Shown here one piece after another: positions 20,946-39,833 of a DNA stretch of 64,000 nucleotides (its first letter is position 1; each line of letters starts with the position of its first letter). The position numbers were made by a program, and so were the translations under genes. Where the stretch lies: positions 4,506 through 68,505 of the forward strand of contig JAHDBV010000001.1 in assembly GCA_020630195.1 (NCBI GenBank), written 5' to 3'. The stretch comes from Acidimicrobiales bacterium (GTDB taxonomy: Bacteria > Actinomycetota > Acidimicrobiia > Acidimicrobiales > SZUA-35). Under the pieces are notes generated by a model that saw nothing but the letters and a program-made list of their open reading frames with translations, was not told the origin of the DNA and did not search any database.

Positions 20946-23900
20946 GTGCACCCCTCGTCTGTCTTCGCGCCGATCCGGCTCCATCGCCACGCCGCAGCGT
21001 TCCTCGCGCTCACCCTCGTGGCATCGCTCACCCAGGCCATCCTCCTGCCCGGCCGCGCCCTCGCGGCCGACGACGCCACCATCAGTGGTGTCCTGTGGGA
21101 CGACGTCAACGGGGACGGCGTGCGGGACGGCGGCGAAGGGGTGCGCCCGGGCCTGACCGTCCAACTCCGGGACGCGACGACGCTCGCACTGCTCGACACG
21201 ACCACGACCGACCCCTCGGGCGCCTACTCGTTCACGGTGGATGGTGCACTCCTGCCGCTGGACCTCCGAGTGCGCGCCCTCGACATCGAGGTGGGTGAGT
21301 CGTTCTCGACCGGCCCCGACGCCGACCTCGGTCCGATCTTCATCAAGCCGATCGACCAGACCTCCAACACCAACCGGGGTGTCGCCGACCGCACCGTCGA
21401 CAAGAACGACGTCGTCGAGCTCGACGGCGGTGTGCGCCCGACCCCGACCGTCTCGGGTCGGGTCTGGAAGGACACGAACGTGAACGGTGTCGAGGACACC
21501 GCTCCCCCGGCCGACGGCGCCGCCGTCGAGGGCCCCATGGCCGGTGTGCCCGTCTCGCTCGTGCACCCGACCACCGGCGAGGTCATCGCGACCACGACCA
21601 CCGCCGCCGACGGCACCTACCTGCTCGACTCATTGCCCGACGGCAACTGGCTCGTGAAGATCGACTCGCCCGACTTCTGGTACGAGGTCAACGAGGCCGC
21701 CGCCGACAACGACATCACCCAGCAGCCCGAGGTCCTCGGTGAGGAGCTCCACGGCACCGCACCCGTGGCGCTGTCCGGCTCCGGCGACACCGCCGTCGAC
21801 GCCGTGCTCGCCCCGCGGGTCACGATCACGACCGAGATCATCCCCACCGTCGGGATCCAGGACGGCACCGCGCCGTTCAACACCTTCGGCACCTGCCCGA
21901 CCCTCACCGCCGGCGACGACTGCGCCGACGACGACGGCGTGGTCCGGACCAACGACGTCGTGACCTTCCCGATCGCCGTCACCGTCGACAACATCCCCGA
22001 CGTCGACGGCAGCGGCAACATCGAAGACGCCGAGATGATCGACGACGTCGTGTTCGAGATGACGATCGTGCCGAGCCAGGCCCCCGACCCCGTCGCCATC
22101 GTCGGCTTCGACAACCTGCCCGCCATCTGCGAGACCACCGGCGGCGCCGACCCGGTCTCGACGATCGTCACGAACCCCGACCAGTCGGTGACCCTCACCT
22201 GCAACCTGGGCTCGTTCAAGAACGAGCTGAAGTTCTTCTCGGCGAGCGTCAAGGTCTACGGCGGCTCCGACAACCTGTCGTCGCTCACCACGACCTCCCG
22301 GATCTACCAGAGCCGCGACGAAGCCGTGCCGGCCGAGCCGCTCCCCGCCGTCGAGACCGACGTGTCGGCCTCCCCGCAGTTCAACCTGACCAAGAACAAC
22401 AACGCCGTCGCCCAGAACCGCCACACCGGCCCCTACCCGCAGTCGCGAGTGAACCCGCTGACCGGCGAGACCGAGTACGGCTACCTCATGCGCTACGAGC
22501 AGTCGATCGTGGTGCCCGACGGCGGCCGTGGTCTCGAGCCCGTCGGCGGCGACATCACCTGGACCGACGACATCGACGATCGCCTCCCCGGCGGCCTCGT
22601 CGTGGAGTGCTGGAACCGCCCGATCGACGGCAACTCCTACATCCCCCACGGCGTCAACGCCCCCGACGGCGACCCGAGCACGCAGCTCAACCAGACCCAG
22701 GACAACGGCAACTGGAGCTGTGTCCGTGAAGCCGACGGTGACATCCAGATCACCGTCACCGACGCCGACACCTCCGGCGCCCGCATCGCCCAGCAGGGTT
22801 GGCGTGGCAACGACCTCACTGCCGGCCCGTACTACGTGATCACCGGCACCGTCGGCATCTGGTACCCGGCATCGGAGCTCTACGACGTGCTCGACGACGG
22901 CGAGGACAACGGATCGTGGGACCCCGACGTCGACGACCCGATCTCCGGCACCGTCAACGTCACCAACTGCGTGGGCGACTTCGAGCCCACCTCCGAAGGC
23001 GGCACCCCGAACTTCGGCGGCACCGGTGAACCCGACGGTGGCACCTCCGACCAGGCCGCCGACCCCGCGGATCGCCCGACCGGCGACAACTGCAAGGTCC
23101 ACTCCCTCGTCGTGACCACGAGCGGTTCCTACTGGAAGCGCTACTACAAGGAGTCCTACAGCTGGAGTGCCGGTCGCCCGTGGCTGCGCAACTACCCCTC
23201 CGGTCAGGCCACGGCCGACACCGGTGACGGCACCGTGTTCCCCGGTGAGAAGTGGTCGGCCGCCGCCTACTGGTACAACCGCAGCCTCGAGGACCACACC
23301 GGCGTGGTGATCTGCGAGACCATCGACCAGCAGACCACGAAGCTGTCGCCGTTCCTCGGCTACCTCGAGAACGACCTCGACCCGGCCGGCAACGGCCCGC
23401 TCGTGGCGACCGTCGGCTTCCACCAGAACGGCACCGGCAACTACAAGGTCCAGTACTACGCGGACGCCGGCGGCTTCAACATCGACCACGGCCACGACCA
23501 GACGCCCGACCCCATCACGGGCCGCCTGCCGATCGACTCCTCCGCCATGAGCGCCGGCACCGACTGCTCCGACGCCGGCACCACCGGCATCTGGCACGAC
23601 GACCCCTATGCCGTGCCCGGAGGCCTCGACGCCATCACCCGCCTCCGGTTGATCCCGGTCGACTACGACGAGACGGCCGATCCCGTCTCGACCATCGGCG
23701 TCGCCCCCGGCACCTACCTCGCCCTCATCATCGGCCTCGAGGCCCGTGACACGTTCAACGGTGGCCCCGCCGACGAGGACGGCGAGCTCATCCCCACCGG
23801 CACCCTGCTCGTCGACCACTCCGGCTACCGCCACACCAACGGCAGCTGGGTGCAGTCGTCCTACAACCCGAACGACCACTCGGGCGCCGGCACCGGCGAC

Positions 23901-26900
23901 CGTGTGACGCTCACCCGGGTCCAGGTCCGCATCGACAAGAAGGCCGACGACGCCGTGCTCGGCGACGACAACGAGAACGCCGTCGCCGCCGGTGACCCGA
24001 TCAAGTGGTCGTTGTGGCCGTCGGTCACCGCGGGAGCCGAGAACGGTGTGGCCGAGAACGTCCGCATCGTCGACGTGTTGCCCGAGTACACCGCCTACGA
24101 CCCGTCGTGTACCCCGGCCCCACCCGCCGGCTACGCCGGTCCGCTGATCACCGACAACGGCGACGGCACGACGACCCTCGAGTGGTCGCTCGGCGATCGC
24201 CCCGCCAACGTCGCCCTCGATCCGATCGAGATCTGCACCTCGACCGATCCCCTCGCCCCGAACGGTGTCGACGTCGTGAACTCGGTCGAGATCATCGCCG
24301 ACAACGACGCCTCCAACCCCGACATCCGCTCGGACGACCGCGGCGTCGAACTCCAGCAGGTCGGCGGCTTCAAGCTCGGCAAGGAGGTCGACCAGCCGCT
24401 CGACTTCGAGGACGACCAGCAGGTCTGGACCCTCACCTGGGCCAACTTCTCCGCCGTCATCCCGATCGACGTGCCCTACATCTACGAGCTGTTCCCCTAC
24501 AACGGCGACGGCCCGGGCGACCTGTCGACCAAGCCGATCACCTCGAACTTCACCGGCCACTACGAGCTGACGGCCGAGCCGACGGCCGACGTCGCCGGCG
24601 CCTTCGAGTACACCGCGGACGACCCCGAGACGGTCTCGTTCATCCACCAGCACCCCTCGAACGATCCGACCACCGGCACCACCACCTGGTGCTCCTATGA
24701 CGGGGCGACCTTCGCCGTCGTCCAGGGCCCCGGCTCCTGCCCGACCGATCTCGGCGACTCGACCGGCTTCCGGTTCGTCTCCGACGACCCGCTGCCGCCC
24801 TCGGGTGTCGCCAACATCGAGTTCACGATGGACGCGGGCGACTCGGCCGGTACCGGTGACCCGGTGAACGACGCCGGCGACCGCTACGCGAACCGGTTCG
24901 CCGCCTACTCGCCGAGCTTCCCGACCCAGGAGATCCGTTCGAACACCACGGTCGTCCAGGTCGTGGCGTTCACCCTCGGTGACCTCGTCTTCGCCGACGC
25001 GAACGACAACGGCGTGTTCGACGGTGCCGACCGCACCGCCCCCGCCGGGGTCGACGTCGAACTGTGGGACGTCTCGGGCGCCCCGGTCCTGGTCGACACC
25101 GTGCAGACCAACGACGACGGCCGCTACGTGTTCGTCGACATCGGCGGCGGCGACCTCGAGGTCCGGATCCCGGCCACCGAGTTCCAGGGCGGCGGTCCGC
25201 TCGAGAACTGGGTCGTGACCACCGCCCCCGAAGCCGACCCGAACACCGACGAGAACGAGGACGTCGACCACCACGCACAGACCTCGGGGACCGAGGCCAC
25301 CACCGGCATCGCGTCCGGCACCGTGACGCTCTCGGCGATCGCCAACCCGAACCCGTCGGGCGGCGAGCCGCTCTTCGACGACGTCTATCCCTTCTCGATC
25401 CCGTTCTTCGGTGACGCCTTCACCAACTACACGGTCGACTTCGGCCTCGCCGGGCCCCCGGCGATCGAGATCGTCAAGGACATCTGCACCGCCGCCGACC
25501 TCGCCGACTGTGATCCCGAGGACGACGACGTGTGGGACCAGACCACGGAGATCGGTTGGTACACCGACGCCATCTGGCGGATCACGGTGACCAACACCGG
25601 CTGGCAGAACCTCTCGTCGGTCGTCATCGACGACGACCTCGAGAACGACTGCGACGCCGCCTCCACCTCCGGCGCCCTCCCGTCCTCACCCGAGGGTCAG
25701 GTCGTCAACGAGCTCGGTGTCCTGACCCTCGACGAGACGGTCCGGTACACCTGCACGAGCACGAACGTGCTCGCGGAGTTCACCAACACCGCCGCCGTCG
25801 ATGCGATCTCCGCCAACGGCACCGAGGTCGACGACGCCGACGACGCCGAGGTGACCCTGCCTCCGCCGGCCCCCGGCATCGACGTCGAGAAGGCGACGAA
25901 CACGATCGACGCCGACGATCCGACCGGGCCCTACCTGCCCACCGGTGACCCGGTCACGTGGACCTACGTCGTGACCAACACCGGCAACATGCCGCTGTCC
26001 GACGTGACCGTCGTCGACGACAACGGCACCCCCGGTGACGCGGGCGACGACCTCACCGGCACCTACGTCTCCGGTGACGACGACGGCGACGACCTGCTCG
26101 ACCTCGACGAGACGTGGACCTTCACCGCCACCGGAACCGCCACGTCGGGCCAGTACGCCAACGACGCCGAGGCGACCGGCTCGCCGGTGCTCACGAGCCT
26201 CGACGACGTGACCGACAACGACGCCTCGCACCACTTCGGCCTCGATGCCGTGAGTGCGATCCGCCTCGAGAAGGCCACGAACGGCGTCGACGCCGACACC
26301 GCGCCCGGCCCGTACGTCGCCGAAGGCGGCAACGTGGAGTGGACCTACGTGGTCACCACCGACGGCTCGAACGTGCCGCTGTCCGACATCGAGGTGATCG
26401 ACGACAACGGCACGCCGGGCGACACCGACGACGATCTGACCGCCGTCTACCTGGCCGGCGACGACGACGGTGACGACATCCTCGACGGTGACGAGACGTG
26501 GACCTTCCGGATCACGGGCCTCGCCACCGCAGGTCAGTACCGCAACGAAGCGAGCGTCACGGGTACGACCCCGACGACGACCGCCGCGAACGGCAACGAG
26601 ACCCCCGGTGTCGAACTGACCGATGACGATCCGTCGCACTACTACGGCGTCACCACCGGCATCACCATCGAGAAGTCCACGAACGGCACCGACGCCGACA
26701 CCGCCCCGGGTGTGTACGTCGACAACGGCGGTGACGTGACCTGGACCTACCTCATCACCAACACCGGCAACACCCCGCTCGGTGCGGTCACCGTCCTCGA
26801 CGACCAGATCGCCGACGACGCGACCGAGATCGACTGCGGCAACGGCACGAACGTGGCGGCGCTGTCGCTCGCGGCGGGCGCCCAGCTGACCTGCACCGCG

Positions 26901-29897
26901 ACGGGAACGGCGACGCCGGGTGCGTACGTCAACACCGGGTCGGTGACCGGCAACCCGCTGGAGCTCGACGGTGACGACCTCACCGGCTTCGACGACGTCA
27001 CCGACGACGACCCGTCGAACCACTACGGCGTCACCACGGGCGTGACGATCGAGAAGTCGACCAACGGTGTCGACGCCGACACCGCACCGGGCCCCTACAT
27101 CGAGGTCGGTGACACGGTGACCTGGACCTACGAGGTCACCAACACCGGCAACACCCCGCTCGGTGCGGTCACCGTCCTCGACGACCAGATCGCCGACGAC
27201 GCGACCATCGACTGTGGCACCCGTGCCGACGACACCGATGCGGACAACGTCATCGTGACCCTCGGTGCCGGCGCCTCCGTCACCTGTTCGGTGTCGGCCA
27301 CCGCCGTCGCCGGTGCCTACGTGAACACGGGCTCGGTCACGGGCAACCCGCTCGACCTCGACGGCGACGACCTGCCCGGCGCCGACGACGTCACCGACGA
27401 CGACCCGTCGAACCACTACGGCGTGCAGACCGGTCTCGACATCGAGAAGTCGACCCAGACCTTCGACGCCGACACCGGCGTCGACCCGCTCGTCGCCGTC
27501 GGCGACGACGTGCGCTGGGTCTACACGGTCACCAACACCGGCAACGTCGACCTCGAGAACGTGACGGTCACCGACGACCAGATCGCCGATGACACCACCA
27601 TCGACTGCGGCACCCGCCCCGACGACACCGAGGGCGACAACGTCATCGTGCTGCTCGAGGCCGGCGACAGCGTCGACTGCCGTGCCGACGGCGTCGCCAC
27701 GGCCGGGGCCTACACCAACGTCGGCTCCGCGACGGGCAACCCGCTCGACCTCGACGGCGACGACCTGCCCGACGTCGACGACCCGACCGACGACGACACG
27801 TCGAACCACTACGGCGTGGTCGTCGGCATCGACATCGAGAAGTCGACCCAGACCCTGTTCGACGCCGACACCGAGACCGGGCCGACGATCGCCACCAGCG
27901 AGGCCGTGTTGTGGACCTACGAGGTCACCAACACCGGCAATGTCGGCCTGTCGAGCGTCGACGTCACCGACGACCAGATCGCCGATGACACCACCATCGA
28001 CTGTGGCACCCGTCCCGACGACACCACGGCCGACAACGACATCGTGCTGATCGCCCCCGGCGAGACCATCACCTGCACGGCGACCGGCACCGCCATCGTC
28101 GGTCAGTACGAGAACGAGGGCACCGCCACCGGCTCCGGCCCGACCACCTACGACGTCGACGGCAACGCCGTCGACCCGGAGGTCGTCACCGACTCGGACC
28201 TGTCCCACTACTGGGGTGCGAACCCCGTGATCGGGCTCGAGAAGGCAACGAACGGCGTCGACGCCGATGACGATCCGGTGCTGCTCCTCGACGACAGCCC
28301 GATCACGTGGACCTACACGGTCACGAACACCGGCCAGGCGTCGTTGACCGACGTCGAGCTCGTCGACGACGCCGGCACCCCGGCCGACGACGGTGACGAC
28401 TGGACGCTCACCGCGGCCGACCTCGTGTCGGGCGACGACGACGATGACGACGAGCTGGATCCTGGTGAGACCTGGATCCTGACCGCCACCGGCGTGGCGA
28501 GCGAGCTCGTCTACGAGAACACCGCCGTCGTGACCGGCACCGGCCCGGACACCACCATCACCACCGGTGTGATCGAGACCGGCCCGACCTACACCGACGG
28601 TGATCCGTCGGGCTACACGATCGTGTCGCCCTCCGTCACCGTGGCGAAGTTCGTCAACGGTGTCGACGCCAACGACGCACCCGGCCCGGAGATCGCGGTC
28701 GGCACGCTCGCCGAGTGGACCTACGTGGTCACCAACACCGGCGACGTCCCGCTCATCGGCATCCAGGTCACCGACGACCAGGGTGTGGCCGTGACCTGCC
28801 CGGTCGATCGCCTCGCCCCCGGCGAGGACACGACCTGCACCGGCTCGGCCGAGGTGGTCGACGGCGACTACGTCAACATCGGCACCGTGTCGGGCCAGCC
28901 CGCCACGGGCGACCCGGCCGACCCCGACGGCTGGACCGCCATCGTCGATCCGATCACCGACGAGCCCATCGACCGGGTCAGCGACGACGACCCGGCCCAC
29001 CACCACGGCTTCAGCCCGTCGTTCGAGGTGTCGAAGCAGATCTGCTCGACCCCCGACATCGACGACTGCGACCCGGACGACGACGACCTGTGGCTCGACG
29101 AGGGCCCGGTCATGTCGACCGAGCCGCTCGTGTGGCGGGTCACGGTGACGAACGACGGCACCATCGGGTTGGCCGACGTGACGATCGTCGACGCCGACGC
29201 CCCGGGCTGCTCGACCGTGGTCGACACGCTCGCCCCGGGTGAGTCGACCGTCGTCACCTGTCAGCAGCCCGCACCCTCGGCCCTGCCGGTGACCAACTCG
29301 GTGACCGTCGGCGTGACGGTCGACTGCCCCGAGTGCCCGCCGGATTGCCCCGAGTGTGAGCTGCCCGAGATCAGCGACGAGTCGACCGCCGTCGACCCGC
29401 CGTCGTTCGACCTCGACAAGCAGGTCGACGACGACACACCCATCGTCGGCCAGATCGTCGAGTTCACGGTGACCGCCATCAACATCGGTGGCTACGTCGC
29501 CGAGGAGGCCATCTTCGAGGACCAGCTGCCGCCGTCACTCGAGTTCGTCGAGTTCGAGGGTGAGCCGACCGCGACGGTCGACACCTCGACCGGCCTGATC
29601 ACCTGGGAGATCCCCGAGCTCCAGCCGGGCGACGAGGCGGTCATCGTGTACCGCACCAAGGTGGTCTCGGCCGGCACGACCGAGAACATCGTGACCCAGC
29701 GCAACCTGACGACGTTCGTGCTCGGCAACAACGCCGCCCAGGCGACCGAGGGCCTCGAAGCCGTCGCTCCCCCGGCGACGCTGGCCTTCACCGGGTCGAC
29801 GTTGTCGTGGACGATCGGGCTGGCGCTGGCGCTGCTCACCGCCGGTGTGGCGTTCCTCCTCATCGGTGGCCGCCGCCGCAACCGCTCGACCGACTGA
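20946..29897 (+). CDS. Giant cell-surface protein: signal peptide, SdrD-B-like domains, multiple DUF11-like repeats, LAFTG anchor
   Basis: FLALTLVASLTQAILLPGRALA signal; ISGVLWDDVNGDGVRDGGEG, VSGRVWKDTNVNGVED, LGDLVFADANDNGVFDGADR; repeated (I)EK(S/A)TNGVDADTAPGPY...TWTYVVTNTGN; LAFTGSTLSWTIGLALALLTAGVAFLLIGGRRRNRSTD. Start codon uncertain. Confidence 0.85.
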   Translation: MHPSSVFAPIRLHRHAAAFLALTLVASLTQAILLPGRALAADDATISGVLWDDVNGDGVRDGGEGVRPGLTVQLRDATTLALLDTTTTDPSGAYSFTVDGALLPLDLRVRALDIEVGESFSTGPDADLGPIFIKPIDQTSNTNRGVADRTVDKNDVVELDGGVRPTPTVSGRVWKDTNVNGVEDTAPPADGAAVEGPMAGVPVSLVHPTTGEVIATTTTAADGTYLLDSLPDGNWLVKIDSPDFWYEVNEAAADNDITQQPEVLGEELHGTAPVALSGSGDTAVDAVLAPRVTITTEIIPTVGIQDGTAPFNTFGTCPTLTAGDDCADDDGVVRTNDVVTFPIAVTVDNIPDVDGSGNIEDAEMIDDVVFEMTIVPSQAPDPVAIVGFDNLPAICETTGGADPVSTIVTNPDQSVTLTCNLGSFKNELKFFSASVKVYGGSDNLSSLTTTSRIYQSRDEAVPAEPLPAVETDVSASPQFNLTKNNNAVAQNRHTGPYPQSRVNPLTGETEYGYLMRYEQSIVVPDGGRGLEPVGGDITWTDDIDDRLPGGLVVECWNRPIDGNSYIPHGVNAPDGDPSTQLNQTQDNGNWSCVREADGDIQITVTDADTSGARIAQQGWRGNDLTAGPYYVITGTVGIWYPASELYDVLDDGEDNGSWDPDVDDPISGTVNVTNCVGDFEPTSEGGTPNFGGTGEPDGGTSDQAADPADRPTGDNCKVHSLVVTTSGSYWKRYYKESYSWSAGRPWLRNYPSGQATADTGDGTVFPGEKWSAAAYWYNRSLEDHTGVVICETIDQQTTKLSPFLGYLENDLDPAGNGPLVATVGFHQNGTGNYKVQYYADAGGFNIDHGHDQTPDPITGRLPIDSSAMSAGTDCSDAGTTGIWHDDPYAVPGGLDAITRLRLIPVDYDETADPVSTIGVAPGTYLALIIGLEARDTFNGGPADEDGELIPTGTLLVDHSGYRHTNGSWVQSSYNPNDHSGAGTGDRVTLTRVQVRIDKKADDAVLGDDNENAVAAGDPIKWSLWPSVTAGAENGVAENVRIVDVLPEYTAYDPSCTPAPPAGYAGPLITDNGDGTTTLEWSLGDRPANVALDPIEICTSTDPLAPNGVDVVNSVEIIADNDASNPDIRSDDRGVELQQVGGFKLGKEVDQPLDFEDDQQVWTLTWANFSAVIPIDVPYIYELFPYNGDGPGDLSTKPITSNFTGHYELTAEPTADVAGAFEYTADDPETVSFIHQHPSNDPTTGTTTWCSYDGATFAVVQGPGSCPTDLGDSTGFRFVSDDPLPPSGVANIEFTMDAGDSAGTGDPVNDAGDRYANRFAAYSPSFPTQEIRSNTTVVQVVAFTLGDLVFADANDNGVFDGADRTAPAGVDVELWDVSGAPVLVDTVQTNDDGRYVFVDIGGGDLEVRIPATEFQGGGPLENWVVTTAPEADPNTDENEDVDHHAQTSGTEATTGIASGTVTLSAIANPNPSGGEPLFDDVYPFSIPFFGDAFTNYTVDFGLAGPPAIEIVKDICTAADLADCDPEDDDVWDQTTEIGWYTDAIWRITVTNTGWQNLSSVVIDDDLENDCDAASTSGALPSSPEGQVVNELGVLTLDETVRYTCTSTNVLAEFTNTAAVDAISANGTEVDDADDAEVTLPPPAPGIDVEKATNTIDADDPTGPYLPTGDPVTWTYVVTNTGNMPLSDVTVVDDNGTPGDAGDDLTGTYVSGDDDGDDLLDLDETWTFTATGTATSGQYANDAEATGSPVLTSLDDVTDNDASHHFGLDAVSAIRLEKATNGVDADTAPGPYVAEGGNVEWTYVVTTDGSNVPLSDIEVIDDNGTPGDTDDDLTAVYLAGDDDGDDILDGDETWTFRITGLATAGQYRNEASVTGTTPTTTAANGNETPGVELTDDDPSHYYGVTTGITIEKSTNGTDADTAPGVYVDNGGDVTWTYLITNTGNTPLGAVTVLDDQIADDATEIDCGNGTNVAALSLAAGAQLTCTATGTATPGAYVNTGSVTGNPLELDGDDLTGFDDVTDDDPSNHYGVTTGVTIEKSTNGVDADTAPGPYIEVGDTVTWTYEVTNTGNTPLGAVTVLDDQIADDATIDCGTRADDTDADNVIVTLGAGASVTCSVSATAVAGAYVNTGSVTGNPLDLDGDDLPGADDVTDDDPSNHYGVQTGLDIEKSTQTFDADTGVDPLVAVGDDVRWVYTVTNTGNVDLENVTVTDDQIADDTTIDCGTRPDDTEGDNVIVLLEAGDSVDCRADGVATAGAYTNVGSATGNPLDLDGDDLPDVDDPTDDDTSNHYGVVVGIDIEKSTQTLFDADTETGPTIATSEAVLWTYEVTNTGNVGLSSVDVTDDQIADDTTIDCGTRPDDTTADNDIVLIAPGETITCTATGTAIVGQYENEGTATGSGPTTYDVDGNAVDPEVVTDSDLSHYWGANPVIGLEKATNGVDADDDPVLLLDDSPITWTYTVTNTGQASLTDVELVDDAGTPADDGDDWTLTAADLVSGDDDDDDELDPGETWILTATGVASELVYENTAVVTGTGPDTTITTGVIETGPTYTDGDPSGYTIVSPSVTVAKFVNGVDANDAPGPEIAVGTLAEWTYVVTNTGDVPLIGIQVTDDQGVAVTCPVDRLAPGEDTTCTGSAEVVDGDYVNIGTVSGQPATGDPADPDGWTAIVDPITDEPIDRVSDDDPAHHHGFSPSFEVSKQICSTPDIDDCDPDDDDLWLDEGPVMSTEPLVWRVTVTNDGTIGLADVTIVDADAPGCSTVVDTLAPGESTVVTCQQPAPSALPVTNSVTVGVTVDCPECPPDCPECELPEISDESTAVDPPSFDLDKQVDDDTPIVGQIVEFTVTAINIGGYVAEEAIFEDQLPPSLEFVEFEGEPTATVDTSTGLITWEIPELQPGDEAVIVYRTKVVSAGTTENIVTQRNLTTFVLGNNAAQATEGLEAVAPPATLAFTGSTLSWTIGLALALLTAGVAFLLIGGRRRNRSTD
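25880..28215 (+). repeat. Tandem DUF11-like domain repeats, nucleotide-level similarity
   Basis: The 60-nt segment beginning acaccggcaacaccccgctcggtgcggtcacc occurs at 26761 and 27142 (381-bp offset); related units continue to about 28.2 kb. Confidence 0.8.
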
Positions 29898-31756: not shown

Positions 31757-33046
31757 TCAGGCGTCGCCGTCGAGGAGCACCGTGTTCGGCCGGTAGGTCG
31801 CCCAGGCGAACCAGAACGTGTCGAGGTGCACCACGGCCTCGAGCTGCTCACCCACGAGGGCGCCGTCGACCGCTCGGCCGGTGAGATCCCAGGTCGTGCC
31901 GGTCTGGTCGTCGACGAACCCGGCGTCGGTGCGGGCGAACGTCAGCTCCGTGCCATCCGCCGACACCGGCACGAACACACCGCTCGCCCCGACGTCGCGA
32001 CCGTCGGCCACGTCGCCCTGTTCGAGCGCGGACGCCAGGCCCGGTTCGGTCCACACGGTCAGGGTGCGACCGTCGACGGTGACCTCGACCACCCCACCGG
32101 CGTCTTCGACGGTCTGGTTGCGGATGGCGGCCGTGGCGGGTTCGGCGACGTCCGCACCACCCGCGCCGTCGGCCACGATGCCGATCACGCGGGCCTTGGC
32201 GGCGAGACGCTCGTCGACGGGACCGTTGAAGAACCCGCCGATCGGCCCCGAGTTCTCCTCGTCGTACCCGGTGTAGGGGTTGGCGCCGTAGGGCCGATCG
32301 TGGCCGGTCTCCTGGGTCAGGACGGTGCCGTCCGGATAGCGCTCGGCGAACTGGTCGAACGACAGGGTCTGGGCCGGCAGGAGCTCGAGGCGGGTCCCGG
32401 CGAGGTGGCCGACGATCGCCTGGCCGGTGAAGTGGGCCCACAACGAGTTGGTCTGGCGGTCGTACATCACCAGGGCCGACTGGTAGAGCTCCCCCGAGGT
32501 GCCGAAGGTGAAGGTCTCGAACGAGCCGTCGGGCTGCTCCACCCGGCCGTCGTAGGCGATGGCGGAGTTGCACAGCGGGCAGTAGGTGACGGTCACCGGC
32601 ACGTCACCGAAGGTGTCGTTGACGATCTCGTGCCAGATCAGGATCCGGATCGGATAGGCCCGGGCCTCGCCGTCGACCTCGAGCGCGATCACCGCCTCGT
32701 CCCCGTCGTCGAGGAAGTCGACGTCGGCGACCGGGACGAACCGTGGGTCGTCGATCGGCGGGATGCCGTCGGGTGGCGGCCCGCCCGAGACGATGAGCGC
32801 CGGGTCGACCACGGGCGGCGGGAACGACGGATGGTTCCGATCGCCGAAGAGGGCCGAATGGGGTGTCTCGATCTCGGTCAGGGGGTTGACGGTGGTCGAC
32901 GACTCACCGTCGGTTGCGTCGCTCGCGGTGTCGTCCGCCGACACGGTCGTGGCGGCATCGGCGGTCTCACCGCCGTCGGAGCTGCACGCCGCCGCGACGA
33001 GCGCGACGGCGACCAGCAGGAGGAACGGGCGTCGAAGGGGGTGCAT
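31757..33046 (-). CDS. DUF3179 domain-containing lipoprotein
   Basis: Lipobox LVAAACSS; DDPRFVPVADVDFLDDGDEAVIALEVDGEARAYPIRILIWHEIVNDTFGDVPVTVTYCPLCNSAIAYDGRV. Confidence 0.85.
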   Translation of the reverse strand: MHPLRRPFLLLVAVALVAAACSSDGGETADAATTVSADDTASDATDGESSTTVNPLTEIETPHSALFGDRNHPSFPPPVVDPALIVSGGPPPDGIPPIDDPRFVPVADVDFLDDGDEAVIALEVDGEARAYPIRILIWHEIVNDTFGDVPVTVTYCPLCNSAIAYDGRVEQPDGSFETFTFGTSGELYQSALVMYDRQTNSLWAHFTGQAIVGHLAGTRLELLPAQTLSFDQFAERYPDGTVLTQETGHDRPYGANPYTGYDEENSGPIGGFFNGPVDERLAAKARVIGIVADGAGGADVAEPATAAIRNQTVEDAGGVVEVTVDGRTLTVWTEPGLASALEQGDVADGRDVGASGVFVPVSADGTELTFARTDAGFVDDQTGTTWDLTGRAVDGALVGEQLEAVVHLDTFWFAWATYRPNTVLLDGDA

Positions 33047-33106: not shown

Positions 33107-36100
33107 TCAGTCGTCGGAACGCTGCGACCGGGCGCCCACGGGGACGGTCCGACGAGTGCGCGACAGCAGCAGGGCACCCACGATCATCAGGATCAACGCA
33201 CCCGAGACCATGAGCCAGGTGGTGACACCCGTGAAGGCGAGCGTGTCGCCTTCGTCGCCGCCATCGGCGACGGCGCCGTTGTTGTTGGTCGACGGGTTCA
33301 CGATGGCCGAGCCGGTGTTGTTCGAGACGACGAGTTCGAGCCCGAACGACAGCACCGACGCCGTGTTGGTCACGTTCCCGGTGCCGCTGATCTGGGTGGT
33401 GAGCTGGAGCAACGGCGTGGTCTCGCCGACGGCGAGGGTCCGGTCGAGCACACACTCGATGGTGGTGGTCCCGCTGCAGATCCAGCCCTCACCGCGGGAG
33501 GCCTGGAAGCTCAGCGCCGACGGCAGCTCGTCCCGCACGGTGATCGGACCCGGATCCGGGTCGGGACCGTTGTTGCGGACCGTGATGTCCCACACCGCGA
33601 TCGCACCGATCGACTCCTCGGTGTTGAGGGTCTTCGAGATCACGAGGTCGATCTCGGCGGGGTGGACGCCGAGGTCCCACGTCGGATCGAACTCGCCGGG
33701 GTCGAGCACCGTGGTGATCGTCGCGCCGGTGGCCGGATCGCCGTCGGAGTCGGTGGCGTCGGTCGCCACGTCGACATCGCGGGTCGTGACCCGGTAGCCG
33801 TCGGGCAACGTCGACAGCTCGAACACGACGCCGTAGGTGCCCGGCATGAGGTCACGGAACTCGTAGCGCCCGTCGGCGTCGGTGTTGGTCTCGGTCACGA
33901 CGTTGCCGCCCTGGTCGACCAGCTGGACGACGACACCGGCCACGCCGGTCTCGCCGTCGTCCTGGACACCGTCGCGGTCGGTGTCGAGGAACACCAGGTC
34001 ACCGAGGCCGGCGAGCGGGATGAACCCGAAGTCGACCGACAGGTTCGACCGGTCGTCGGGCTGGCCGACACCGGTGTCGTCGTCGGTCGGATCGTCCGAA
34101 CGCAGCGTCTCGTCGGTCGGCTCGGTGCCGCCGAGGGTCACGGTGCCGCTCAGGACCTCCGTGAGCGGGCGGCTCTGTTCGCCGTTGTCGTCGTTGTCGA
34201 CGTCGTCGTCGGGATCGGCAACCGTCGGGGTCGTCGAGCCGTGTCCGGCGAGCGCGGTCTGGGCGCCGTCGATGCGCACGCGGTAGTCGCCGGCCGACAG
34301 GCCACCGAACACGTAGTGACCGTCGCCGTTGGTGACGGTGTCAGTCACGACGTCGCCGTCGGCGTCGAGCAACTCGACGGTGACCCCGGACAGCCCGGGT
34401 TCGCCATCATCGGCGATGCCGTCGGCGTCGAGATCGAGCCAGACGAGGTTGCCGAGCTGGTAGAGCGGTGCGGGCGAGACCACCACGATGTCGTGGTCGT
34501 CGGAGTCGCCGACCTGGTTGTCGATGGTGATGTCGCTCTCGAGGAGGCGGTCGATCACGGGGTCGTTGCCGAGGTCGGGGTCCGGCGTCGAGTCGTCGTC
34601 GGCCTCCGGCCCGGTGTCGGCGGTGATCTCCGCGGTGAGGGTGAACGACGGAACGAGCGCACCCGTGCCGTCGGTGACGTCGTCGACCCGGATGGTGGTC
34701 AGGATCGAGACCTGCTCACCGGGGTCGAGGTTGTCGATGCTCCACTGCGGCTCGCCGTCGGGGCCCGGGGCCACCGTCGTGATGACCGCACCGGTCGCAC
34801 CGACCTCGGCGGTCGCGCCGGTCAGCGTGAGCCCGTCGGGCAGCAGGTCGCGGATGGTCGCACCGCCGGGGGTCTGTCCCTGGTTGGCGACCGTGATCCG
34901 GGCCTGGAAGCTGTCGCCGACCTCGAGCGGCGACGGGTCGGCGCCCACGATCGTGTGGATCAGGGCGAGGTCGAACTCGGGGTCGACGTAGCCGACGTCC
35001 ACGGTCATGTTCGAGGCGTCGTCCGCGATCGAGTTGCCCGGATGGTCGTCGGTCGGATCGTCCGATCGGAGCGTCTCGTTCGTCGGCTCGGTGCCGCCGA
35101 GGGTGACGATGCCGGTGCGGACCTCCGAGCCCGCGATGGTCGGCGCCACGGCGAGTCCGTTGTCGTCGTTGTCGACGTCGCCGCCGGCGTCGGGATCCGA
35201 CACGTCGGGCAGGGTCGAGAACACCGTGGCGAGCTCGGTCTGGCCGCCCGGCACGACCACCTGGTAGTCGCCGGCGGTCAGGCCGGTCACGACCCAGTGG
35301 CCGTCGCCGTCGGTGGTGACCTGGGCCACGAAGTCGTCGCCGACCCCGTCGGCGCCGGTCTCGCGCCACACCTGGACGTCGACCCCGGCGATGCCGGGTT
35401 CGCCGTCATCCGCGATGCCGTCGGCGTCGAGGTCGAGCCAGACGAGGTTGCCGAGCTCGTAGAGGGTCTCGGGGGTGAGCACGGCGATGTCGTGGTCGTC
35501 GGAGTCACCGGCCTCGTCGTCGATGGTGACGTCGGTGCGCTCGGTCCGGTCGATGACGTCGTCGTCGCCGGGGTCGAGGTCGGGGCTCGAGTCGGCGTCG
35601 GCGCCGTTGTCGATGGCGATCTCGGCGACGTTGCGGAACTCGGTCAGCATCGGCTGGCCGACACTCGCCTCGTCGGCACGGAAGGTCCCGGTGGGCACCT
35701 CGGTCACGGAGAAGACCTCGGCGGTGTAGGTCAGTTCGACCTCCTCGCCGGGATCGAGCTCGTCGCCACCGGCCGGCACGGTCCACCCGAGGGTGCCGCC
35801 GCCGCTGTCGGTGTAGGAGCAGAACGTGCCACCCGTCGGCGGGGCGCCGGCGGCCGGGGCGCACGACAGGCCCACCGGGTCGGCGTCGGAGTCGTCGAGC
35901 TGGATCGGGTCGGTGGACGACCCGCCCGCCGCCACACCCGCGATGGTGCTGGCGACGTAGTTCATGCCCTCGGGGATCGTGTCGATCACGCTGAACGCCG
36001 CCGGGGCGGCGCCCTGGTTGCGCACCACGATCGTGACGTCGATCTGGTCGCCCACCGAGACGGGGCCGGGGTCGCCACCGTCGATGAGCTTGACGAGGGC

Positions 36101-38995
36101 GAGGTCGTACTCGGCGGCCGGGGTGGTCACGGTGACCGAGGCGCCGTCGTGGTCGTCCTCGTCACCACCGGCGTTGTCGACCTCGTCGTCGACCGGGGAC
36201 TCGGTGGTGGTGCCGTTCGTGGTGTCGGGCGTCGAGTCGGCGTCGTCGCCGTCGTCGACGGAGATCTCGGCCCAGTTGGTGAGGATGCCGGTCGCGCCGA
36301 CGTCGACGGTCGCGAGCACCTGGTAGGTCACCTGGTCGTCGACCGCGATCGCCGAGATCGTGACGTCGGGTGCGGTGCCACCGAAGGTGACGGCGTTGCC
36401 GTCGTCGGAGGTCGCCGGGGTCACGAGCGAGTCGTAGGTCAGCCCGGTCGGCAGGTACTCGGTCACCTCGACGTCCGCCGCGGGGAGGTCGCCCTGGTTG
36501 ATGACGGTGACGTCGAAGGTGACGGTCTCACCGACCGTCACGTTGACCGACTGTCCGGCGGCGAGGGTCTTCACCAGTGCGAGGTCGTACCGGTCGGTCG
36601 TGAAGCCGGCGTCGATGCTGTGGTCGTTCGCGCCGGCCGCACCGGTGGTGTAGGCGACACGGGACAGACCACCGCCGACGTCGGTGGCGTCGGAGTCGGT
36701 CTGGTCGCCACCGGAGGTGTTGGCCGTGGTCAGCTCGATCGCTTCGCCCGCGGGCCCGGTCACGCTGTTGGTGGCCACGTCGAACTCGACGACGTAGTCG
36801 GTGTTCGGTGCGATACCGGCCGGAACGGAGATGTTCGTGAACAGGTACCGGCCGGCGGCGTCGGTGGTGACCTGGCCCAGGCTGGGGCCGTTCGGGTCGC
36901 CGTCACCGTCGGTGTCGGCGAAGAGTCGCACGATCACGTCGGCGAGCGCCGGCTCCGACGGGTCGGCCTGGCCGTCACCGTCGGCGTCGAACCAGACGTA
37001 GTTGCCGATCTCGAGCGGCGCGGAACACATCCAGACGGCGTCACCGAGGCCGTTGGCCTTGCCGAACACGTTGCCGTCGGTGCCGTTCGAGGTGCCCTCG
37101 TAGAGCTCGTAGCGCTGCGGGGCGTCGCCGGCGTTCGCACCGGAGGACTCGAAGAACAGCACACCACCGGTCTGCACGTCGCGGGGGTCCATCGCCGTCA
37201 CGGCGACCCGGTCGGAACCGGGGATGAGGGCGAGGCCACCGAAGGCGACCTCGTCGTGGAGGGCGTTCAGTGCGTAGTCGCCGAAGTAGAACTCACCGGA
37301 CGGGGTGCCGTCGGAGGTGCCGGGCCCGACGGCCGGGTCGTCGGGGCCCTGGCCGGTGCCGGCGCCGCTGGTGGTGACCCCACCACACGACCCGTCGACC
37401 TCGAGGTCCCAGCCACTGGCGCCGTCGTCACACATCCGCAGGATGTCGCCGGAGCCGAAGGCCTCGTAGAGCTGGGGGTCGGAGAGGTCGGGCGAACGGT
37501 CGAACGAACCGATCTGGTCGCCGAACCGGTCCCGCAGACCGATGATGAGGTCGTCGCCGTCGAACTCGAGGTCGGCGAACATGGGCTGGGGATGGGCGAG
37601 CGAGTCGTCGGGCTGGGGGATGTTGGCCCAGACGTCCTCCCACGGCTCCCAGTCGGCATCGCGGTCGGCCGAGCAGGTGGACGCCACGTAGGCGGTGGCG
37701 GCGGCCGCGGTGCTGTTCGACGAGCCGGCGCAACGCCGGTTGTAGCCGAGGTTGAACGAGGTGACCTCGGTGAACCCGGGGGCGTCGAAGCGCATCACGT
37801 GGGCGGTGAGGTCCTGATCGCAGACGCCACCGACGAAGACGTTCGTGCCGTCGTGGGCGACGGCCATCGGACGCCACTGGGTCGCCACCGAGCAGGGGCT
37901 CGTGATGGCGGTCGCATCGGTGGCGGCGGTGAGGGCGGTGCCGGCCGCATCGAGCGGCAGGCGCACGAGGGTCTTGTCCTCCATGTGCACGGCCCAGAGG
38001 GTGTCGCCACCCGGGCCGAGCTCGAGGTCGCCGAGACCGGTCTTGCCGACCGCGGCGAACGCGTCGACGTCACGGTCCCAGCCGCTCGTGCCGCGGGGCA
38101 CCGCGGTGGCGTCCGCACCGGCGCCGAGGTCGACCAGCAACACCGGCGTGCCCGGTGAGGTGGTGACGGTGGGCACGACGTAGATGGCGCCCTCGCCGTT
38201 CGGGCCGTAGCCCGCGTGGCGCTTGGTGTAGGCACCGGCGTACAGGGTGTCCGAGCCCGGCCGGTAGGCCAGACCGTAGGTCGTGCCGATCTCGCCGGCG
38301 TCGCCGAGGAAGTCGGGGGTGGTGTGGCCCGGCTCACCGATGTAGCCACTCGAGGTCTCGTCGAAGCCGACGAGCACGTGCTCGTCCGCCGCGTCGACCC
38401 CCGACTGGTCGCCGCGCACGAAACAGGACGTGGCGAGTGCATAGGTGCCGCAGCGGTAGTCCGCCGGGTCGTGGAAGCCGAACACGAGGCCACCGACGGC
38501 GGCGTCGACGTTCTCGAGCCAGATCACACCGGTCTCGGCCTGCGGGCCGTCGGTCGTCGGCTGGTGTCCCGCCGGCGCCGTGGCCGGGTCGACCACGACC
38601 CGACAGTCGGCGCCCTCCACCGAGGCGAGGGAGAACGTGCCACTGACTCCCGTCGTCACGGTGTCGGTCGACACCTGGGGGGCCGTCGCCGGATCGCTGT
38701 CGTGGTCGTAGTCGCAGACGACGGTGACCTCGACACCCGACAGACCCGACTCGCCGGTGTCGAACTCACCGTCCGCGATGTCGGCCGGGGTCTGGTTGGT
38801 GCCGCCGTTGTCGTCGAAGACGATGCCGCCGATCGTGCCGGGGTCGCCGGGAGAGGCCGCCGCCGGGGTCGGTGCGGCGCCGGAGAGCAGCGCGGCGAAC
38901 ACGCCGATGGCGGCGCCGACACGCCAGCGCGAGCCGACGGATCGGGAGGTCGACGATGTCGACCCCCGGGGATTCGGGGAGATGGAGCGAGCCAT
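33107..38995 (-). CDS. Giant cell-surface protein: SdrD-B-like and DUF11-like domains, LAFTG anchor
   Basis: IGNYVWFDADGDGQADPSEPAL, LGNLVWLDLDADGIADDGEPG (twice), LGDLVFLDTDRDGVQDDGETG; C-terminal LAFTGVTTWLMVSGALILMIVGALLLSRTRR. Start inferred at MARSISPNPRG. Confidence 0.83.
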   Translation of the reverse strand: MARSISPNPRGSTSSTSRSVGSRWRVGAAIGVFAALLSGAAPTPAAASPGDPGTIGGIVFDDNGGTNQTPADIADGEFDTGESGLSGVEVTVVCDYDHDSDPATAPQVSTDTVTTGVSGTFSLASVEGADCRVVVDPATAPAGHQPTTDGPQAETGVIWLENVDAAVGGLVFGFHDPADYRCGTYALATSCFVRGDQSGVDAADEHVLVGFDETSSGYIGEPGHTTPDFLGDAGEIGTTYGLAYRPGSDTLYAGAYTKRHAGYGPNGEGAIYVVPTVTTSPGTPVLLVDLGAGADATAVPRGTSGWDRDVDAFAAVGKTGLGDLELGPGGDTLWAVHMEDKTLVRLPLDAAGTALTAATDATAITSPCSVATQWRPMAVAHDGTNVFVGGVCDQDLTAHVMRFDAPGFTEVTSFNLGYNRRCAGSSNSTAAAATAYVASTCSADRDADWEPWEDVWANIPQPDDSLAHPQPMFADLEFDGDDLIIGLRDRFGDQIGSFDRSPDLSDPQLYEAFGSGDILRMCDDGASGWDLEVDGSCGGVTTSGAGTGQGPDDPAVGPGTSDGTPSGEFYFGDYALNALHDEVAFGGLALIPGSDRVAVTAMDPRDVQTGGVLFFESSGANAGDAPQRYELYEGTSNGTDGNVFGKANGLGDAVWMCSAPLEIGNYVWFDADGDGQADPSEPALADVIVRLFADTDGDGDPNGPSLGQVTTDAAGRYLFTNISVPAGIAPNTDYVVEFDVATNSVTGPAGEAIELTTANTSGGDQTDSDATDVGGGLSRVAYTTGAAGANDHSIDAGFTTDRYDLALVKTLAAGQSVNVTVGETVTFDVTVINQGDLPAADVEVTEYLPTGLTYDSLVTPATSDDGNAVTFGGTAPDVTISAIAVDDQVTYQVLATVDVGATGILTNWAEISVDDGDDADSTPDTTNGTTTESPVDDEVDNAGGDEDDHDGASVTVTTPAAEYDLALVKLIDGGDPGPVSVGDQIDVTIVVRNQGAAPAAFSVIDTIPEGMNYVASTIAGVAAGGSSTDPIQLDDSDADPVGLSCAPAAGAPPTGGTFCSYTDSGGGTLGWTVPAGGDELDPGEEVELTYTAEVFSVTEVPTGTFRADEASVGQPMLTEFRNVAEIAIDNGADADSSPDLDPGDDDVIDRTERTDVTIDDEAGDSDDHDIAVLTPETLYELGNLVWLDLDADGIADDGEPGIAGVDVQVWRETGADGVGDDFVAQVTTDGDGHWVVTGLTAGDYQVVVPGGQTELATVFSTLPDVSDPDAGGDVDNDDNGLAVAPTIAGSEVRTGIVTLGGTEPTNETLRSDDPTDDHPGNSIADDASNMTVDVGYVDPEFDLALIHTIVGADPSPLEVGDSFQARITVANQGQTPGGATIRDLLPDGLTLTGATAEVGATGAVITTVAPGPDGEPQWSIDNLDPGEQVSILTTIRVDDVTDGTGALVPSFTLTAEITADTGPEADDDSTPDPDLGNDPVIDRLLESDITIDNQVGDSDDHDIVVVSPAPLYQLGNLVWLDLDADGIADDGEPGLSGVTVELLDADGDVVTDTVTNGDGHYVFGGLSAGDYRVRIDGAQTALAGHGSTTPTVADPDDDVDNDDNGEQSRPLTEVLSGTVTLGGTEPTDETLRSDDPTDDDTGVGQPDDRSNLSVDFGFIPLAGLGDLVFLDTDRDGVQDDGETGVAGVVVQLVDQGGNVVTETNTDADGRYEFRDLMPGTYGVVFELSTLPDGYRVTTRDVDVATDATDSDGDPATGATITTVLDPGEFDPTWDLGVHPAEIDLVISKTLNTEESIGAIAVWDITVRNNGPDPDPGPITVRDELPSALSFQASRGEGWICSGTTTIECVLDRTLAVGETTPLLQLTTQISGTGNVTNTASVLSFGLELVVSNNTGSAIVNPSTNNNGAVADGGDEGDTLAFTGVTTWLMVSGALILMIVGALLLSRTRRTVPVGARSQRSDD

Positions 38996-39092: not shown

Positions 39093-39833
39093 TCAGCGCA
39101 GGCTGACGCTCACCGAGGCGCTCTCGATCGCCGGGCCGCAGCTGCCGCCCGTCGTCGACTCGATGCGCAGGGTGCCGAGCTCTCCACCGTTCGGCGGCAG
39201 CTCGGCGGTCACGAGGTCGAACTCGCCGAAGTCGGTGTCGACCGAGAAGGTCTGCACGACCTCACCGTTCCAGAGCACCTGGCCCGTCTTCGCCCGACCG
39301 TCGGCCGTGGTCGAACCCTGACAGAAGTGGTTCTCCGAGGCGAGGAAGGTCAGCGTGTAGGGAGCGTTGCGGGCGACCCGGAGCTCGGTCTCGATGGCGC
39401 CGGGTTCGTTGCCGTTGAGATCGAGGATCTTCTCCCCGTTCGGTGCCGCGGCTCCGGTGTTGCGCCAGCGGGCGGACAGGGTCGGCTGGTCGACCCGGAA
39501 CGGATCGACGGATCCCTCCGCCACGGTCCAGATCCCGATGGTCTCGCCTTCGTCGTAGACGATGTAGAAGTCGTCCTCGCCGTCCTCGAACGACTGCGAC
39601 GCCGCGGCACCGCCACCGAAGCTGCCGCCCGAGTTGGTGGAACCGAAACCGCCGGACGCGCCAGCGTCGCCGTTGTCGAGCACTTCACCCTCGATGACCG
39701 CGGCGGTGTACTGCAGGTCCTCGTCGGCCGAGTCGCCGGTGTTCCGGAGTGCGAACACGACGACGCCCGCGATCACGGCGATGATCAGTCCGTACTCGAT
39801 GGCGCCGGCGCCACGCTCGTTCCTGCGTGCCAT
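39093..39833 (-). CDS. Flp/Fap-type pilin N-terminus fused to DUF642/choice-of-anchor-like domain
   Basis: MARRNERGAGAIEYGLIIAVIAGVVVFAL (class III prepilin-like); C-terminal IGIWTVAEGSVDP...NGEKILDLNGNEPGAIETELRVARNAPYTLTFLASEN...GTLRIESTTGGSCGPAIESASVSVSLR. Confidence 0.7.
   Translation of the reverse strand: MARRNERGAGAIEYGLIIAVIAGVVVFALRNTGDSADEDLQYTAAVIEGEVLDNGDAGASGGFGSTNSGGSFGGGAAASQSFEDGEDDFYIVYDEGETIGIWTVAEGSVDPFRVDQPTLSARWRNTGAAAPNGEKILDLNGNEPGAIETELRVARNAPYTLTFLASENHFCQGSTTADGRAKTGQVLWNGEVVQTFSVDTDFGEFDLVTAELPPNGGELGTLRIESTTGGSCGPAIESASVSVSLR

What the first reader, a model, noticed from the sequence alone, without database searches (positions are those of the whole stretch)
39093..39833. 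Flp-type pilin fused to a DUF642/choice-of-anchor-like carbohydrate-binding-type domain
Seen: class III prepilin N-terminus ERGAGAIEYGLIIAVIAGVVVFAL followed by ~200 aa with WTVAEGSVDP...LDLNGNEPGAIETEL...YTLTFLASEN...TLRIESTTGGSCGPAIESASVSV. Established: canonical Flp pilins are about 50-80 aa, and DUF642/choice-of-anchor proteins are extracellular beta-sandwich proteins. Inference: a pilin-adhesin placing a sugar-binding domain on a Tad pilus, encoded just upstream of a giant surface protein.
Basis: partly seen in the sequence, partly recalled or inferred. Interest (0 to 1): 0.7.

Follow-up and report, generated by a model that had tools for sequence, protein, structure and literature searches.

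The report
Tad-type pilin carrying a carbohydrate-binding-like domain
An actinobacterium related to the Acidimicrobiales encodes a tiny pilus-building helix joined by a flexible linker to a domain shaped like a sugar-binding module, which suggests that some bacteria hang different sticky domains on their thin Tad pili; the sticking itself has not been shown.

Summary
On the minus strand, 39833-39093, lies a 246-aa gene: leader MARRNERG, a Flp-type helix (Pfam Flp_Fap above cut-off), a Gly/Ser linker, and a C-terminal domain related to DUF642/choice-of-anchor C. That domain is mostly well predicted, and Foldseek places it among carbohydrate-binding jelly rolls (CBM35/6/16/22/4). The fusion is a conserved family: nine full-length copies in five genomes of the order, dN/dS about 0.23 between two orthologues. 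All five genomes carry TadB/TadC-like genes and an A24 prepilin peptidase; the window's genome has a canonical Tad cluster with two ordinary 40-residue Flp pilins. The same genome has further Flp-headed fusions; one (weak ricin-B-like match) lies inside a Tad/TadE/TadE cluster, syntenic in the sister genome. So Flp helices appear to carry interchangeable modules, as known for Streptococcus PilB/PilC and TadG-like tips, but not found described for Flp pilins in the papers I could search. Sugar binding and presence in a pilus are inferred. The neighbouring giant surface protein is absent at this site in the sister genome, so that link is not conserved. Verdict: real, a new variant of modular pilins.

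The parts
39093..39833 (-). Flp-DUF642 modular pilin gene, 246 aa
39810..39833 (-). leader peptide MARRNERG, predicted prepilin-peptidase cleavage after Gly8
   Evidence: sequence; Gly-1 / Glu+5 / Tyr+6 pattern
39747..39809 (-). Flp hydrophobic helix AGAIEYGLIIAVIAGVVVFAL (residues 9-29; Pfam match aa 4-34)
   Evidence: profile matches Tad PilA/Flp structures 8u1k and 8u2b, E about 1.5e-4
39594..39746 (-). residues 30-80: second short predicted helix (36-47), then Gly/Ser/Asp-rich linker, low confidence
39096..39593 (-). residues 81-246: DUF642 / choice-of-anchor C domain, beta-sandwich with CBM-like jelly-roll fold

Best explanation
This is a modular Tad (type IVc) pilin. Steps: (1) the protein enters the membrane through its hydrophobic Flp helix; (2) a prepilin peptidase cuts after Gly8, leaving AGAIEYGL... 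with Glu at +5; (3) the helix is packed into, or at the tip of, a Tad pilus built mainly of the ordinary 40-residue Flp pilins by TadA/TadB/TadC; (4) the linker lets the CBM-like domain project from the filament, where it binds a glycan (cell wall, exopolysaccharide or particle surface), giving the thin pilus an adhesive function. Shown here: the architecture, its conservation, the fold prediction, the co-existence of Tad machinery and peptidase, and the recurrence of the design with other modules. Inferred: cleavage, incorporation (low copy, tip or shaft), and glycan binding.
For: Flp_Fap above cut-off; profile finds Tad pilus PilA/Flp structures 8u1k and 8u2b; Gly-1 in 9 of 9 and Glu+5 in 8 of 9 homologues. 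C-terminal domain mostly well predicted (most pLDDT block means 83-95 outside loops), nearest PDB folds largely CBM35/6/16/22/4, E about 1e-6 to 1e-5. Full-length fusion in five genomes of three families of the order, dN/dS about 0.23. Tad cluster with two normal Flp pilins in G000:C40 and the matching G108:C110; T2SSF pairs and A24 peptidase in G108, G278, G027, G171 and in G000. Same genome: Flp helix joined to a ricin-B-like module inside a Tad/TadE/TadE cluster, syntenic in G108, and to another beta-type module on C132. Precedent: PilC of S. sanguinis is a modular minor pilin with a proven glycan-binding module (PMC9934059); Tad tips expose variable domains (PMC12075869).
Against: The window gene, its C99 paralogue and the C132 gene lie apart from any tad or tadE gene. 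One homologue has Gln instead of Glu at +5, and Tyr+6 is kept in only 4 of 9. The fusion is rare: 5 of 398 genomes of the order, none further in a 398-genome phylum sample. I found no proven ligand for bacterial DUF642. The N-terminal half of the model has low confidence.
Confidence: 0.6

Rival explanations
1. Membrane-anchored surface lectin: the Flp helix is only an anchor (cleaved or not) that holds the CBM-like domain at the outer face of the cytoplasmic membrane or in the cell wall, and the protein never joins a pilus.
For: Orphan gene position; Tyr+6 mostly lost and Glu+5 lost in one copy; the domain of about 160 aa dwarfs the 40-residue Flp subunit; long low-confidence linker.
Against: Gly-1 is invariant and Glu+5 kept in 8 of 9, beyond what a simple anchor needs; a Flp fusion of the same design is encoded inside a Tad/TadE/TadE cluster; every genome with the fusion has Tad-type genes.
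Confidence: 0.22
2. It is assembled into the pilus, but the DUF642-type domain is structural or binds protein or DNA rather than sugar, for example capping, spacing or partner recruitment.
For: DUF642 remains a domain of unknown function; jelly-roll folds serve many roles, and the Foldseek list also holds the cyclase HpiC1 and other non-CBM proteins; ligand residues could not be assigned.
Against: Many of the top Foldseek hits are carbohydrate-binding modules; homologue G171 also matches CBM_6 weakly, E=9e-4; a second module type in the same genome resembles a ricin-B lectin.
Confidence: 0.15
3. Chance or mis-assembly: a Flp gene and a DUF642 gene joined by an assembly or frame artefact.
For: The genome is a draft in 200 contigs, 82% complete, 4% contaminated.
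Against: Nine full-length copies in five genomes, with an open frame and purifying selection.
Confidence: 0.02

Closest known systems
Modular type IV pilins PilB and PilC of Streptococcus sanguinis (PMC8179133, PMC9934059)
   Same: N-terminal class III signal and pilin helix with an extra, non-pilin binding module grafted on; PilC carries a proven glycan-binding lectin module.
   Different: Those carry the IPR012902 (N_methyl) motif and a pilin module. Here the carrier is a Flp/Tad helix and the module is DUF642/CBM-like. The published survey searched only IPR012902, so it would not have covered Flp-headed proteins.
Tad pilus tip complexes: KilL/M/N and TadEFG minor pilins with Flp adapters KilK/KilO (PMC12075869); CpaL of Caulobacter (PMC12607857)
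   Same: Tad pili carrying variable C-terminal domains for contact; the Flp-trefoil relative sits in a Tad/TadE/TadE cluster like such tips.
   Different: There the domain is on a TadG-like or CpaL pilin, and the Flp adapter KilO is a bare 59-aa helix. Here the domain is on the Flp helix itself, and the window protein has no TadE or Tad (PF13400) match.
Canonical Flp/Tad major pilins (PDB 8u1k, 8u2b; G000:C40 Flp)
   Same: Leader ending in Gly, Glu+5, Tyr+6, one hydrophobic helix.
   Different: About 40 mature residues against 238 here.
Free-standing choice-of-anchor C / DUF642 proteins (for example Streptomyces plasmid proteins)
   Same: Same C-terminal domain family.
   Different: The match covers only the domain (query residues 82-244), not the Flp helix.

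Membership tests
Flp/Tad (type IVc) pilin | Leader ending in Gly, Glu at +5, Tyr at +6, then about 20 hydrophobic residues | tested here: met
   MARRNERG/AGAIEYGLIIAVIAGVVVFAL
Flp/Tad (type IVc) pilin | Pfam Flp_Fap above curated cut-off | tested here: met
   35.7 bits against 32.2, (matches positions 3-33 of 46)
Flp/Tad (type IVc) pilin | Short pilin, about 50-80 aa precursor | tested here: not met
   246 aa; the extra length is the linker and the DUF642 domain
Flp/Tad (type IVc) pilin | Gene inside a tad locus | tested here: not met
   Neighbours are an oxidoreductase gene and the giant gene, then DUF3179; the tad cluster is on contig C40
Flp/Tad (type IVc) pilin | Tad assembly genes and prepilin peptidase in the genome | tested here: met
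Flp/Tad (type IVc) pilin | Cleaved and incorporated in a filament | not testable with these tools
   needs an experiment
Modular type IV pilin (S. [quoted passage not shown]
Modular type IV pilin (S. sanguinis PilB/PilC type) | N_methyl (IPR012902) motif | tested here: not met
   Pfam scan lists Flp_Fap and Class_IIIsignal, no N_methyl
Modular type IV pilin (S. sanguinis PilB/PilC type) | Globular pilin head between helix and module | tested here: inconclusive
   No strand predicted before residue 93, but pLDDT below 50 over 27-81
DUF642 / choice-of-anchor C | Curated score cut-off | tested here: inconclusive
   Window protein below both cut-offs (20 of 27 bits; 40 of 120 bits); two full-length homologues above the DUF642 cut-off (36.6 and 33.8 bits)
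DUF642 / choice-of-anchor C | Galactose-binding/CBM-like jelly-roll fold | tested here: met
   Foldseek: CBM35, CBM6, CBM16, CBM22, CBM4; E about 1e-6 to 1e-5, target TM up to 0.68
DUF642 / choice-of-anchor C | Carbohydrate binding | not testable with these tools
   no ligand site could be assigned
TadE/TadG-type tip minor pilin | TadE (PF07811) or Tad (PF13400) match | tested here: not met
   no match for the window protein at E up to 10

The most novel reading that the evidence does not exclude
Flp pilins are a general display platform: Acidimicrobiia (and perhaps other bacteria) decorate their Tad pili with a set of interchangeable binding modules carried directly on Flp helices (DUF642/CBM-like, ricin-B-like, Ig-like and others), a lineage of modular pilins separate from the IPR012902 type and from TadG-type tips, giving one cell several differently adhesive Tad pili or tips.
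Probability: 0.4. Interest if true: 0.7.

Novelty: new variant of a known kind. Interest (0 to 1): 0.5.

Why it matters
The two Tad pilin chains found in the PDB are only 45 residues long, so how pili of such small subunits stick to targets is a live question; the published answer so far is TadG/CpaL-like tip proteins. A Flp helix that carries its own CBM-like domain would be a second answer, would widen the definition of modular pilins beyond the motif used in the published survey, and offers small, probably soluble domains on which glycan binding can be tested directly.

Tried and rejected
Link to the giant SdrD_B/DUF11 protein (likely 38995-33107, minus): rejected as conserved, since in G108 the orthologous pilin gene is followed directly by the DUF3179 gene and the giant gene is absent there. 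Structure of the Flp-ricin-B relative: predicted from only two sequences, mean pLDDT 41, unusable, so no fold search was run; the ricin-B assignment rests on two weak matches, E=0.0019 and 0.0017. Most long open frames around Flp matches in the class survey were ordinary Flp pilins with the frame extended upstream, so open-frame length is not a count of fusions. Phage collection: no match. Plasmids: only domain-only choice-of-anchor C matches in Streptomyces. PADLOC: no match. Promoter/terminator scan: no promoter-like site, one terminator-like site inside the gene, uninformative. PMC10710030, cited for Tad pilus structures, was not held.

Full report
Observation. The gene is real and at the stated coordinates, on the minus strand. 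It encodes 246 aa: leader MARRNERG, then AGAIEYGLIIAVIAGVVVFAL, a second short predicted helix, a Gly/Ser/Asp-rich linker to about residue 80, and a C-terminal domain. Pfam gives Flp_Fap above its cut-off (E=7e-9) and DUF642 below it (E=6e-4, aa 95-238); NCBIfam gives choice-of-anchor C at E=3e-10, below its curated cut-off. The giant gene follows 97 nt downstream if its ATG at 38995 is the start.

Conservation. G000, the window's genome, is a 4.9-Mb draft in 200 contigs, 82% complete. A related contig is titled 'Acidimicrobiales bacterium'; its length and match are those of contig C116 of genome G108, so I take the two as one source and do not count them twice. Searches of 398 genomes of the order found nine full-length Flp-DUF642 proteins in five genomes: G000 (two), G108 (three), G278 (two in tandem), G027 and G171. 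A 398-genome sample of the phylum gave no further full-length copy. They align from leader to C-terminus, with ERGA at the cleavage site invariant. The leader's last Gly is present in all nine, Glu+5 in eight (Gln in G108:C65), Tyr+6 in four. The G108 orthologue is 80% identical with dN 0.16 and dS 0.71. DUF642 exceeds its cut-off in two homologues.

Structure. AlphaFold2 with the nine-sequence alignment gave mean pLDDT 67: helix 11-31 and the linker at low confidence, the C-terminal beta-sandwich mostly at 83-95 with weaker loops. Foldseek against the PDB returned CBM35, CBM6, CBM16, CBM22, CBM4, xyloglucan- and porphyran-binding modules, and the cyclase HpiC1, at E about 1e-6 to 1e-5 and target TM-scores up to 0.68. 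The alignment profile also hits the Tad pilin structures 8u1k and 8u2b through the helix (E about 1.5e-4). A jelly-roll fold allows but does not prove sugar binding.

Machinery. G000 has T2SSF and T2SSE genes on several contigs. Contig C40 holds two ordinary Flp pilins (about 40 mature residues) and TadC-, TadB- and TadA-like genes; G108:C110 has the same block followed by two further genes at the place where TadZ- and CpaB-like genes are expected, read from position and sequence start only. One A24 prepilin peptidase was found, on C193. G108, G278, G027 and G171 all have paired T2SSF genes and an A24 peptidase. TadE-type genes form several clusters in G000 and G108.

A wider pattern. G000 carries more proteins headed by a Flp-type helix. 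Contig C3 has one followed by a ricin-B-like module (E=0.0019), encoded between a Tad (PF13400) gene and two TadE-type genes; G108:C51 has the syntenic orthologue, 48% identical, E=0.0017. Contig C132 has one with a beta-type domain of no clear family. Contig C138 has one with a Thr/Pro-rich tail beside TadE-type genes. Other genomes show Flp helices followed by linkers and different domains (G564, G128, G095, G878, G045). Most Flp genes are ordinary, so these are a minority, and I have no unbiased count.

Mechanism. The best reading is a modular Tad pilin: processed like a Flp pilin, packed by its helix at low copy in or at the tip of a Tad filament, with the CBM-like domain exposed on a linker as an adhesin. 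Cleavage, assembly and binding are inferred. The main rival is a membrane-anchored surface lectin that never joins a pilus; the orphan gene position speaks for it, the strict Gly-1/Glu+5 pattern and the relative inside a Tad/TadE cluster speak against it.

Literature. Modular pilins are known: PilB and PilC of S. [quoted passage not shown] Tad pili with variable tip domains on TadG-like pilins, coupled by Flp adapters (KilO is a 59-aa Flp), are known (PMC12075869), as is CpaL, a minor pilin-like protein with a vWA domain (PMC12607857). In seven full-text searches of an open-access library I found no description of a Flp helix fused to a binding module; absence there is not proof of novelty, and the library lacks most subscription papers. 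I therefore call it a new variant of a known kind.

Giant neighbour. In the window the order on the minus strand is pilin, giant (SdrD_B and DUF11 domains, ending in LAFTG and a hydrophobic segment), DUF3179 gene. In G108 it is pilin, DUF3179 gene. The giant gene was gained or lost at this site, so adjacency carries little functional weight. The DUF3179 gene is the downstream neighbour shared by both.

Noticed in passing
L105 1498-2115 + (G000:C3); L183 5336-5959 - (G108:C51): Flp-type helix joined to a weak ricin-B-like (beta-trefoil) module, encoded inside a Tad/TadE/TadE gene cluster and syntenic in both genomes.
   Followed up: partly
L106 1456-2184 + (G000:C132): Flp-type helix followed by a Gly-rich linker and a beta-type domain of no clear Pfam family; the next gene on the strand looks GGDEF/EAL-like by eye.
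   Followed up: partly
L007 (G000:C138), minus strand: Flp-type helix followed by a long Thr/Pro-rich tail, next to two sets of TadE-type genes.
   Followed up: no
L152, L156, L080, L071, L070: Flp helices followed by acidic, Gly/Ser, Thr/Pro or collagen-like linkers and small beta-type domains in other genomes of the class.
   Followed up: partly
window 33107-38995 (-) and 20946-29897 (+): Two giant surface proteins with SdrD_B and DUF11 domains (the second also DUF7507); the first ends in LAFTG plus a hydrophobic segment like a sortase signal. The first is absent at this site in G108, the second has a counterpart there.
   Followed up: partly
window 31757-33046 (-): DUF3179 lipoprotein-like gene; in G108 its counterpart directly follows the Flp-DUF642 gene (short gap) and may be its conserved operon partner.
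   Followed up: no
L058 8397-10040 - (G278): Two Flp-DUF642 genes in tandem, a local duplication.
   Followed up: no
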